A DNA stretch of 64,000 nucleotides from Baekduia soli. GTDB lineage: Bacteria > Actinomycetota > Thermoleophilia > Solirubrobacterales > Solirubrobacteraceae. The notes under the pieces were generated by a model that did not search any database, was not told the origin of the DNA, and worked only from the letters and a program-made list of their open reading frames with translations. Below, in pieces: positions 43,251 to 49,211 of the stretch. The first letter of the stretch is position 1, and the number at the start of each line of letters is the position of its first letter. The position numbers were made by a program, and so were the translations under genes. Location of the stretch: positions 3,286,001 to 3,350,000 of the forward strand of contig NZ_CP042430.1 of assembly GCF_007970665.1 (NCBI RefSeq), read 5' to 3'.

Positions 43251-45920
43251 ATGACCGACCGTCGCCGAAACATCATCGTCCTGGGCCTCGTCGCCGCGCT
43301 GCTGCTCGCGTCGCTGGCGATCATCATCCCCGGGCTGCCCACCTCGAAGCAGACCCGGCAGGGCCTGGACCTCAAGGGCGGCACGTCGCTGGTCTACGAG
43401 GCCAAGCCGACGCGGTTCAGCAAGGTCACGTCGGACTCCATCCAGCGCACGATGGACATCATGCGCGACCGCGTCGACAACCTCGGCGTGGCCGAGCCCG
43501 AGATCCAGCGCGCGGGCTCCAACCAGATCGACGTCTCGCTGCCCGACGTCCAGAACGCCGACCAGGCCCAGCAGCAGGTCGGCACGACCGCCCAGCTGTA
43601 CTTCTACGACTGGGAGAAGACGGTCCTCGGCCCGGACGGCAAGCCGCATCCGACCGACGCCGCCGTCACCGGCGGCCAGGCGGCGGGCACCCCCGGCCAG
43701 GGCACCCAGAGCTACTACGAGGCCGTCACCCGCGCCTCGAAGTTCCCGGCCACCAACGAGCCCAACGACACCACCAACGGCCTCTACTACGGCGTCGACG
43801 ACAAGGCCAAGACCGTCCTGTGCGGCCCGCAGGAGGCACTGGCCGACATCAAGGAGACCTGCACGAACGCCGGCAAGCGGCCGAGCTCGTTCGTCCACGT
43901 GCCGCGCGGCTACGTCATCGTCCAGGCCGAGAACGACTCGACGAGCAAGGCGGCGGCCGCGGCGGCCTCCGACGCCTATTACATCCTCAAGGACGATCCG
44001 TCCCTCCTGGGCACGGACATCAAGAACCCCGAGCAGAACATCGACAGCTCGGGCACCGGCCAGCCCAACGTCACCTTCGACTTCACGAGCGCGGGGCGCA
44101 AGAAGTGGCAGGCCACGACGCGCGAGATCGCCCAGCGCGGCACGGCGCTGCTGCTGCCGGGGACCGACCCGCGCGCGGTGGCCAACCACTTCGCGATCGT
44201 CCTCGACAACAAGCTCATCTCGGTCCCGTACATCGACCCGCAGCAGAACCCGGACGGCATCGACGGGTCCAATGGGTCGGAGATCTCGGGCGGCTTCACC
44301 ATCAAGTCGGCCCAGCGGCTGGCCAACCTCATCAAGACCGGCGCGCTGCCGATCCGCCTCGAGCTCATCTCGCAGTCCCAGGTCTCGGCCACGCTGGGCC
44401 AGCAGGCGCTGCACCAGGGCCTCATCGCGGGCATCGTGGGCTTCGCGATCGTCGCGGTGTTCCTGCTGGTCTTCTACCGCGTGCTGGGCATCATCGCCGT
44501 GGGCGCGCTCTTCGTCTACGCGATCTACTTCTTCGCGCTCATCAAGCTCATCCCCATCACGATGACCCTGCCGGGCATCGCGGGGCTGATCCTGACGATC
44601 GGCGTGGCGGCCGACGCCAACATCGTCATCTTCGAACGCGTCAAGGAAGAGGTGCGCGCGGGCAGATCGGTGTCGGCGGCCATCGTCACGGGCTACCGCA
44701 AGGGCCTCGCGGCGATCATCGACGCCAACGTCGTGACCTTCATGGTCGCGTTCATCCTCTTCATCCTCGCGACCGCTGGCGTCAAGGGCTTCGCCTTCAC
44801 GCTGGGCATCGGCACGCTGACGTCGCTGTTCACGGCCGTGCTGGCGACCCAGGCCGTCCTCGGGTCCATGGGGCGCTCGCGTTTCCTGCACAGCCCCGCG
44901 GCGCTGGGCGCCGGCGAGAAGAAGCGCTCGTGGAGCCAGGACTTCATGGGCGCCTCGAAGTGGTTCTTCTCCATGTCGGGGATCATCCTGCTCATCGGCG
45001 CGCTGGCCATCGGCGGCAAGGGCCTGAACTTCGGCATCGACTTCCAGTCGGGCACGCGGGTCAAGGCGGCGTTCGCCCAGGTGCCCAACGAGAAGGACGT
45101 CAGCAGCGCGCTGCGCTCGGCGGGCTTCAAGAACCCCGAGGTCCAGAAGGTCAAGGGCGACAAGGCGCTCAAGCGCGCCGGGATCCAGATCTCGCTGGGC
45201 GAGAGCGCCCCGCAGACCATCGCCAAGGTCAAGCCCCTGCTGACCAAGCGCTTCGGGACGCCCACGGCCTACGAATCGGACTCCATCGGCCCGACCTTCG
45301 GCAAGACGGTCGCCAACAGCGCCATCATCGCCATCATCGCGTCGCTCGTCGTCATCAGCGCGTACATCGCGCTGCGCTTCGAGTGGAAGTTCGCCGTGCC
45401 CGTGCTGATGGCGCTGATGCACGACCTGCTCATCACGGCGGGCGTCTACTCCCTCACCGGCCGGGAGGTGACGACGTCGACGGTCGCGGCGCTGCTGACC
45501 ATCCTGGGCTACTCCCTCTACGACACGATCATCGTGTTCGACCGCATCCGCGAGAACGTGCCGCGCATGCCACGCGCCGCGTTCACGCAGATCGTCAACC
45601 GGTCGATGAGCGAGGTCCTCACCCGGTCGCTGGCGACCTCGTTCTGCACCCTGCTGCCGATCCTCGCGCTGCTGCTGTTCGGTGGCAGCACGCTGAAGGA
45701 CTTCGCGTTCGCGCTGCTGGTCGGCGTGGTCTCCGGCGCCTACTCGTCGGTGTTCATCGCCTCCCCGGTGCTCGCGCACTGGAAGGAGCGCGAGGAGGTC
45801 TACCGCCGCCGCCGCGCGCGGATCGCCGAGGAGACCGGGGGCCACGTGCCCCCTACGCCGAGGCCGCCCACGGCGTCGTCGTGGACCCCACGCGCCGCCG
45901 GCGCCCGGGCAACCGCCTGA
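43251..45920 (+). CDS. secDF: fused SecD-SecF protein-export membrane protein
   Basis: An 889-residue fusion of SecD and SecF that uses the proton-motive force to pull exported proteins out of the Sec channel. SecD half: GLDLKGGTSLVYEA, periplasmic P1 region with VDNLGVAEPEIQRAGSNQIDVSLPDV, then LPIRLELISQSQVSATLGQQAL and VGVAADANIVIFERVKEEVRAG. SecF half from about residue 560: NFGIDFQSGTRVKAAF, LMHDLLITAGVYSLTGREVTTSTVAALLTILGYSLYDTIIVFDRIREN (in part). About 12 helices. The last about 20 residues after a C-run at 45849 are Pro/Arg/Ala-rich and probably out of frame; see the next entry. Confidence 0.93.
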   Translation: MTDRRRNIIVLGLVAALLLASLAIIIPGLPTSKQTRQGLDLKGGTSLVYEAKPTRFSKVTSDSIQRTMDIMRDRVDNLGVAEPEIQRAGSNQIDVSLPDVQNADQAQQQVGTTAQLYFYDWEKTVLGPDGKPHPTDAAVTGGQAAGTPGQGTQSYYEAVTRASKFPATNEPNDTTNGLYYGVDDKAKTVLCGPQEALADIKETCTNAGKRPSSFVHVPRGYVIVQAENDSTSKAAAAAASDAYYILKDDPSLLGTDIKNPEQNIDSSGTGQPNVTFDFTSAGRKKWQATTREIAQRGTALLLPGTDPRAVANHFAIVLDNKLISVPYIDPQQNPDGIDGSNGSEISGGFTIKSAQRLANLIKTGALPIRLELISQSQVSATLGQQALHQGLIAGIVGFAIVAVFLLVFYRVLGIIAVGALFVYAIYFFALIKLIPITMTLPGIAGLILTIGVAADANIVIFERVKEEVRAGRSVSAAIVTGYRKGLAAIIDANVVTFMVAFILFILATAGVKGFAFTLGIGTLTSLFTAVLATQAVLGSMGRSRFLHSPAALGAGEKKRSWSQDFMGASKWFFSMSGIILLIGALAIGGKGLNFGIDFQSGTRVKAAFAQVPNEKDVSSALRSAGFKNPEVQKVKGDKALKRAGIQISLGESAPQTIAKVKPLLTKRFGTPTAYESDSIGPTFGKTVANSAIIAIIASLVVISAYIALRFEWKFAVPVLMALMHDLLITAGVYSLTGREVTTSTVAALLTILGYSLYDTIIVFDRIRENVPRMPRAAFTQIVNRSMSEVLTRSLATSFCTLLPILALLLFGGSTLKDFAFALLVGVVSGAYSSVFIASPVLAHWKEREEVYRRRRARIAEETGGHVPPTPRPPTASSWTPRAAGARATA

Positions 45921-46698: not shown

Positions 46699-49211
46699 GT
46701 GATCACCCCGCGCCTGGACGTCCCGCCGTGTGCCAGCGCCGCGGCGCTGGCGCTGGCGCGCGACCTCGGGGTGGGCTTCCCCGTCGCGCAGGTCCTCGTG
46801 CGGCGCGGCCTGGGGGACCTCGAGGCCGCGCGGCGCTGGCTGGCCGCCACCGACGAGCACCCGGCCTCGGCGTTCGCCGGGATCGACGTCGCCGTGGAGC
46901 TCATCGCGCGGCACGCCGCCGAGCGGACGCGCATCACCGTCCACGGCGACTACGACGTCGACGGCGTGGTCTCGACGGCGATCCTCGTGCGCACCCTGCG
47001 GGCGGTGGGCGCCGACGTCGACTGGTACCTGCCCAGCCGCGGCGAGGACGGCTACGGCCTCTCGGCCGCGACCGTCGAGCGCCTCGCCGCGCGCGGCACG
47101 CGCCTGCTCGTGACGGCCGACTGCGGCATCACGTCGGTGGCCGAGGTCGCGCTCGCGCGCTCGCTGGGCCTCGACGTGGTCGTGACCGACCACCACACGC
47201 CGCGCGCCGACGGCGCGCTGCCCGATGCGCCCATCGTGCACCCGGCGGTCTGCGGCTACCCGTGCGCCGACCTGTGCGCCGGGGGCGTGGCGCACAAGGT
47301 CGCCGGCGCGCTGCTGGAGGCCTGCGGCCACGACGCGGACATCGCGCTGGCCGATCTCGACCTGGTCGCGCTGGCCACGGTCGCCGACTGCGTGCCGCTG
47401 CGCGGGGAGAACCGGCGCCTGGCGCGCACCGGCCTGCTCACGCTGACGCGCACGGAGAAGGTCGGCCTGCGCGCGCTCATGCGCGTCGCCGAGGTCGACC
47501 CGACCCGCATCGACGCCCGCACCCTCGGCTTCCAGCTTGCCCCGCGCCTCAACGCCGCCGGCCGCCTGGCGCGTGCCGACGCCGCGCTGGAGCTCCTGCT
47601 CACCCACGACGAGGACCGCGCGCAGCACATCGCGCAGGAGCTCGACCGCGCCAACGCCGACCGCCGCTTCGTCGAGCAGCGCATCCTGTTCGAGGCCGAG
47701 GCGCAGGTCGCCGACCTCGGGCCCCAGCCCGCGTACGTGCTCTGGGCCGAGGGCTGGCACAAGGGCGTCATCGGGATCGTCGCCTCCCGGATCGCCGAGC
47801 GCCACCACCGCCCGGTGCTGCTCGTCGCGCTGGCGGAGGGCGAGGACGAGGGGACGGGCTCGGGCCGGTCCATCCCGGCGTTCGACCTGCTCGGGGGCCT
47901 CGACGCCTGCGCCGCGCACCTCGAGCGCCACGGGGGCACCGGGCCGCCGCGGGCTGCACGGTGCGCCGGGGCGAGCTCGAGGCGCTACGGGCCGCCTTCT
48001 GCGCCCATGCCGCGGCGGTGCTGGAGCCCGAGGACCTCGTGCCGGCCGAGCGCGTCGACGCGGTCGTGGCCGGCGACGAGCTGGGCACGAAGCTGGCCGA
48101 GGAGCTCGGCCGCCTGGCGCCGTTCGGCATCGGCAACCCCGCGGTGTCGCTCCTGGTGCCCGCCGCGCGCCTCGTCGACCCCGTGCCGATGAGCGAGGGC
48201 AAGCACGTGCGCTTCACCGTCGAGGCCGGGGGCATCCGGGCGCGCGCGGTCGCCTTCGGGATGGGCAGTCTGCCCGAGGGCGCGGCCGAGGGCCGCCTGA
48301 ACGCGACGTTCACGCTCGAGCTCGACGAGTACCGCGGCGCGGTCGAGCCGCGGCTCGTGCTGCGCCGCCTGCTGCCCGCGGGCGACGTCGCCCCCGAGCT
48401 CGTCGGGGAGCCCGAGCCCGGCGGCGCCGCATGGACCGAGGTCGTCCTGGACCGCGCCCAGCGGGCCGAGGCCCGGGAGGGCGTGCTCGTCGGCGTGGCG
48501 GCCACGGAGGGCGGGGGCGGGCTGCTGGATCCCCGGCGCACGACGTCGCCCGGCCTGGGGGCGATGGCCGGCCACGCCCGCGATCGCCGCCCCGGGCGCC
48601 GCGCGGTGCGCGACCGCCGCGACGGCGGCATCGCCGGCACGATCGCCGCGCTCGTGGCCACCGGCGAGCCCGTGCTCGTGGTCTGCGCGGACGCCGTCGT
48701 GCGCCGCGCCCAGCTGCGCGGCCGGCTCGGCGGGTTCGCCGTGTGCAGCTACGAGGCCCTGGAGGAGACGCCCGAGCTCGCCGACGCCTACGACCACCTC
48801 GTCGCGCTGGACCCGCCGCTGCACCCGGACCACGAGGCGCTCCTGCTGCGGGGCGGAAGCGACCGGATGGCCCATCTGGCCTGGGGGTCCCCTGAGCTAC
48901 GCTGTGCGAGGGAGACCCTGCACCGTGACTACGCCCTTCGCCCCAGCCTCGGCCGTGCCTACCGCGCACTGCGCGACGGCGCCGGCCTGGTCGGCGCGCT
49001 CGGCAGCCTGCCGGCCGCGTCCGCCGCGCGGATGCTGCGCGTCCTGCTCGAGCTCGGCCTCGTCGAGGTCGGTGAGGACGGCGAGGTGGCCGTCCCGCCC
49101 GCGCAGCGCACGGAGCTGGAGCGCTCGCCGTCCTTCCGGGCCGCGGCCCGCCGCCACGACGAGGGCCTGCGATGGCTGACCAGCGTGAGCGAGACGTCGC
49201 AGGCGGCGTGA
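46699..49211 (+). pseudogene. recJ: single-stranded-DNA exonuclease RecJ with a one-base frameshift
   Basis: Together two frames encode a RecJ of about 837 residues. The DHH part is in the first frame from GTG 46699: HGDYDVDGVVSTA (Asp84, 86, 88), TADCGIT, VVTDHHTP, and LATVADCVPLRGENR and PRLNAAGRL. The DHHA1 part is in the frame one base back: HRAAAGCTVRRGELEALRAAF, APFGIGNP. The switch falls in the conserved GGHRAAAG motif: cac-ggg-ggc-acc is read where cac-ggg-ggc-cac is expected, i.e. one C missing at about 47937. The first frame alone stops at 48192. Either recJ is broken or this is a base-call error. The C-terminal domain is longer than in E. coli RecJ and overlaps relA. Confidence 0.85.

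What the first reader, a model, noticed from the sequence alone, without database searches (positions are those of the whole stretch)
46699..49211. recJ is frameshifted inside its conserved GGH motif
The DHH half and the DHHA1 half of RecJ are in neighbouring frames. Restoring one C near 47937 changes GG-TGPPRAA to the family sequence GGHRAAAG and joins the halves into about 837 residues. This is a clear one-base loss, either a genuine inactivating mutation or a sequencing mistake in a G5C context. RecJ is normally important in recombination repair, so a real mutation would be notable next to intact RuvABC.
Basis: seen in the sequence. Interest (0 to 1): 0.5.

Follow-up and report, generated by a model that had tools for sequence, protein, structure and literature searches.

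The report
recJ frameshift, probably a sequence error
A DNA-repair gene in this soil-bacterium genome looks broken by one missing letter, but the same genome record has many such gaps, even in a gene cells are thought unable to live without, so it is most likely a sequencing or assembly mistake.

Summary
The 5' part of recJ (46699 to about 47937) and the 3' part (to 49211) lie in neighbouring frames, the join falls in the GGH motif, and the genome has no second recJ. In 107 of 107 related loci where both halves could be placed, they share one frame.

It is not specific to recJ. In 800 kb of this genome (15%) a frame-switch scan gave 40 candidates; 35 are of the one-base-loss type and 20 have a run of at least four equal bases close by (about 15% at random). 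Three same-genus assemblies gave 12, 4 and 0 candidates in 400, 400 and 337 kb. Genes hit include the only glutamyl-tRNA synthetase gene, pyrD, and the secDF tail 2.1 kb before recJ; the carB tail was found separately. Only part of the candidates was checked by homology. Loss of the only glutamyl-tRNA synthetase is not credible, so dropped bases in the consensus are the simplest common cause. recJ too sits on a run of five G.

Verdict: ordinary, most likely an artefact. A real recent recJ mutation cannot be excluded without reads.

The parts
46699..47937 (+). 5' part of recJ: DHH domain and most of DHHA1, up to the GG of the GGH motif
   Evidence: TIGR00644 positions 5-397, Pfam DHH and DHHA1; the ORF stays open out of the family frame to 48192
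47932..47939 (+). site of the frame break: run of five G followed by CAC
   Evidence: sequence; comparison with 17 relatives
47937..49211 (+). 3' part of recJ in the neighbouring frame: end of DHHA1, RecJ_OB, C-terminal extension, natural stop
   Evidence: TIGR00644 positions 401-544 and Pfam RecJ_OB; one frame with the 5' part in 107 of 107 related loci
45847..45853 (+). second break of the same kind in the window: tail of secDF leaves its frame at a run of five C
   Evidence: G006 and G001 read the tail in one frame with the rest; sequence

Best explanation
The frame break is an error of the deposited consensus sequence: a base was dropped at or beside a G/C run in a 74% G+C genome, as is common in long-read assemblies. 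The organism most likely has an ordinary intact single-copy recJ, a 5'-3' single-strand exonuclease with DHH, DHHA1, OB and C-terminal extension, like its relatives. Shown: the break, its restriction to this record among the loci compared, the excess of loss-type frame switches near base runs in the 15% of the genome sampled, and a break in the only glutamyl-tRNA synthetase gene. Inferred: the sequencing platform, and that the recJ break has the common cause.
For: 107 of 107 related loci with both halves are in one frame (104 of 104 where both alignments touch the junction). 40 frame-switch candidates in 800 kb of this genome, 35 of them loss-type, 20 with a run of 4 or more within 11 nt against 15.1-15.5% at random (binomial p about 1e-6 and 3e-7). 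G001, G005 and G006 give 12, 4 and 0 in 400, 400 and 337 kb, and only 4 of the 12 in G001 are loss-type and 1 of 12 near a run. In 5 of the 6 candidates of the first stretch that could be tested, both relatives read one frame. The only gltX is split over two frames, while 22 of 25 genomes pass the family cut-off. The recJ break lies on a run of five G. Homopolymer indels are the predominant residual errors of long-read assemblies and fragment genes (PMC12007338, PMC8011154: passages).
Against: No reads; platform unknown. Half of the 40 candidates have no run of 4 or more nearby. One of 6 testable candidates was contradicted by both relatives, 11 of the first 17 had no counterpart in the fetched stretches, and the 23 of the second stretch were not compared. 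Completeness (95.55%) is like that of G001 and G006, so the error load is moderate. dN/dS of the 3' part is slightly higher in pairs with this genome (0.49-0.56) than between full-length relatives (0.38-0.49). The carB model still passes its cut-off, only its tail is out of frame.
Confidence: 0.93

Rival explanations
1. A true, recent one-base deletion in recJ of this strain. The product would leave the frame after residue 413, lose the motif VII histidine and the OB domain, and be a recJ null; 5'-3' resection would fall to other nucleases.
For: The site by itself looks the same for a mutation and for an error; base runs are also mutation-prone. dN/dS of the 3' part is slightly higher in pairs with this genome. 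No other lesion in either half, as expected for a recent event.
Against: The same kind of break recurs across the record, also in gltX, which can hardly be a true loss. All 31 of the 31 good-quality genomes (this one included) hold a match to the 5' part, and 23 of 25 pass the RecJ cut-off; the exceptions are this genome and one 78% complete genome.
Confidence: 0.06
2. A programmed -1 frameshift or a recJ encoded in two pieces.
For: The shift is in the -1 sense and lies on a G run.
Against: No relative compared has the arrangement (107 of 107 in one frame). The in-frame heptamer C GGG GGC is not of the usual X XXY YYZ type (pattern recalled). Other breaks in the record have unrelated contexts.
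Confidence: 0.01

Closest known systems
RecJ single-strand-specific 5'-3' exonuclease (TIGR00644; Deinococcus radiodurans RecJ, PMC4846377)
   Same: DHH, DHHA1 and RecJ_OB domains in the usual order and all in open frames; a C-terminal extension is also present in relatives and in Deinococcus RecJ.
   Different: In this record the two parts are in neighbouring frames and neither passes the TIGR00644 cut-off.
Homopolymer indel errors of long-read bacterial assemblies (PMC12007338, PMC8011154)
   Same: Single-base losses, enriched at base runs, many genes hit, indispensable ones included.
   Different: Platform and reads of this record are unknown; half of the candidates are not near a run of 4 or more.

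Membership tests
RecJ (TIGR00644) | DHH domain with its metal-binding motifs | tested here: met
   Pfam DHH 71.8 bits against a cut-off of 28.1; HGDYDVDG and TDHH visible in the 5' ORF
RecJ (TIGR00644) | DHHA1 with motif VII (RxGGH) in one frame | tested here: not met
   frame broken after GG in the record; met in 17 of 17 relatives printed
RecJ (TIGR00644) | RecJ_OB domain | tested here: met
   62.9 bits against 27, in the other frame
RecJ (TIGR00644) | model score over the curated cut-off as one gene | tested here: not met
   366.9 and 62.5 bits in two pieces, cut-off 396.9
Consensus indel error | lesion private to the record, not shared by relatives | tested here: met
   107 of 107 related loci in one frame
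Consensus indel error | many breaks of one type in the record, near base runs, also in indispensable genes | tested here: met
   40 candidates in 800 kb, 35 loss-type, 20 near runs of 4 or more; gltX
Consensus indel error | reads disagree with the consensus | not testable with these tools
   no reads held

The most novel reading that the evidence does not exclude
The breaks are real, and this lineage lives with a genome-wide load of one-base losses, even in gltX, through frequent -1 reading or transcript slippage at G/C runs.
Probability: 0.01. Interest if true: 0.9.

Novelty: not a real feature. Interest (0 to 1): 0.07.

Why it matters
It warns against reading gene loss from this record. At the sampled rate (40 candidates in 800 kb) about 260 would be expected genome-wide (my extrapolation, and not all candidates are true breaks), so any pseudogene claim from it needs reads. 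The biology of recJ here is probably ordinary.

Tried and rejected
A second recJ that could spare the broken one: none found in the genome. A shared or programmed frameshift: not seen in any of 107 loci. An old pseudogene: both halves stay open and dN/dS is well below 1. In pairs with this genome it is 0.27-0.30 for the 5' part (among relatives 0.18-0.30) and 0.49-0.56 for the full-length 3' part (among full-length relatives 0.38-0.49), so slightly higher on the 3' side but not clearly relaxed (simple Nei-Gojobori counts; G004 is cut short on the 3' side, and its pairs, 0.17-0.27, are left out of these 3' ranges).

The first frame-split surveys used a loose gene filter; they listed antisense ORFs, and with relatives as queries they missed recJ and pyrD. 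I therefore relied on a codon-usage frame model and on homology. Without a filter the model's counts do not separate the genomes (48 and 53 for the two stretches of this genome, 51 for G001, 39 for G006, 41 for G005); many of these look like overlapping neighbour genes. The filter (upstream frame open more than 50 nt past the switch) was chosen after seeing the first three counts. Counts of G/C runs by length did not tell the genomes apart clearly. Viral contigs gave 7 distant RecJ relatives and none for the 3' part.

Full report
What is there. The window lies at 3286001-3350000 of a single-contig genome of 5,212,251 bases. The best named RecJ relatives are Solirubrobacteraceae at 68-70% identity (which kept the best 80 of 521 and may leave out records of the genome itself). 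recJ begins with GTG at 46699 and is open in that frame to 48192, but RecJ similarity stops at RHGG, after about 412 residues. From 47937 the family sequence continues in the neighbouring frame to the stop at 49211. TIGR00644 covers positions 5-397 on the first piece and 401-544 on the second. Pfam finds DHH and DHHA1 on the first piece and RecJ_OB on the second. The break is thus inside DHHA1, in the RxGGH motif, and not between DHH and DHHA1.

Is it shared? Of 120 loci in hand, 4 are this genome, 9 show only the first half, and 107 show both; in 107 of 107 both halves are in one frame, and in 104 of these both alignments touch the junction (106 of the 107 have distinct 5' sequences). In the base-level print of 17 relatives GGH is intact in 17. 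By family model 23 of 25 genomes pass the RecJ cut-off; this genome and one 78% complete genome do not. The genome has no other RecJ. What the lesion would do follows from the family: in Deinococcus RecJ His397 of motif VII hydrogen-bonds the scissile phosphate and its alanine mutant is strongly slowed (PMC4846377, passages only). That His397 is the GGH histidine is my inference from the spacing Arg393 to His397.

Error or mutation? The question is whether recJ is special in this record. I fetched 400 kb around recJ from this genome and from same-genus genome G001, and 337 kb from same-genus genome G006, then a second 400 kb of this genome and 400 kb of same-genus genome G005. A codon-usage frame model was run on each, and same-strand frame switches were kept if the upstream frame stayed open more than 50 nt past the switch. 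This genome gave 17 and 23 candidates, G001 12, G005 4, G006 0. In this genome 35 of 40 are of the one-base-loss type, and 20 of 40 have a run of four or more equal bases within 11 nt, against 15.1-15.5% at random places (binomial p about 1e-6 and 3e-7). In G001 the figures are 4 of 12 and 1 of 12. This genome therefore has a signature of its own: losses, often at G/C runs.

Homology check. For 6 of the 17 candidates of the first stretch the fetched relatives have a counterpart at the junction. In 5 both relatives read it in one frame: secDF, recJ, pyrD and two genes I did not name. The sixth is contradicted by both. The other 11 had no counterpart in the fetched stretches, and the 23 of the second stretch were not compared. 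The carB tail, found separately, has its last 44 residues in another frame than the rest, as both relatives show; the carB model still passes its cut-off. pyrD is named by family models on both pieces. The secDF break lies in this window, 2.1 kb before the recJ break, at a run of five C.

The strongest point is gltX, one of the other 11. The genome's only glutamate-tRNA ligase gene is split, profile positions 2-226 in one frame and 224-465 in another. The one other gltX-like gene passes three GluQRS cut-offs and stays below the gltX cut-off. 22 of 25 genomes pass the gltX cut-off; the two failures besides this genome are 81% and 68% complete. A living cell without glutamyl-tRNA synthetase is not credible (established knowledge), so this break is almost surely an error, and recJ carries the same mark. 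Indels at homopolymers are the commonest errors of long reads and fragment many genes in assemblies (PMC12007338 and PMC8011154, passages).

Against. No reads are held, the platform is unknown, and completeness is like that of G001 and G006, so the error load is moderate. Half of the candidates are not near a run of four or more. A recent true mutation in recJ alone would look the same at this site. dN/dS shows no clear decay of either half, but the 3' part is slightly higher in pairs with this genome (0.49-0.56 against 0.38-0.49 among full-length relatives).

Verdict. RuvC, RuvA and RuvB next door are intact.

Noticed in passing
window 45840-45855: The tail of secDF is in a neighbouring frame in this record, at a run of five C; relatives G001 and G006 read it in one frame.
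   Followed up: yes
genome 3262321 (L127 about 10322), outside the window: The only glutamyl-tRNA synthetase gene is split over two frames.
   Followed up: yes
genome about 3357466 and 3358209 (L132), outside the window: The carB tail and pyrD, close neighbours, each have a frame break against both relatives.
   Followed up: partly
G001, L141-L160: G001 has 12 frame-switch candidates in 400 kb without a bias to losses or base runs; 2 of the 12 are in one frame in G006.
   Followed up: partly
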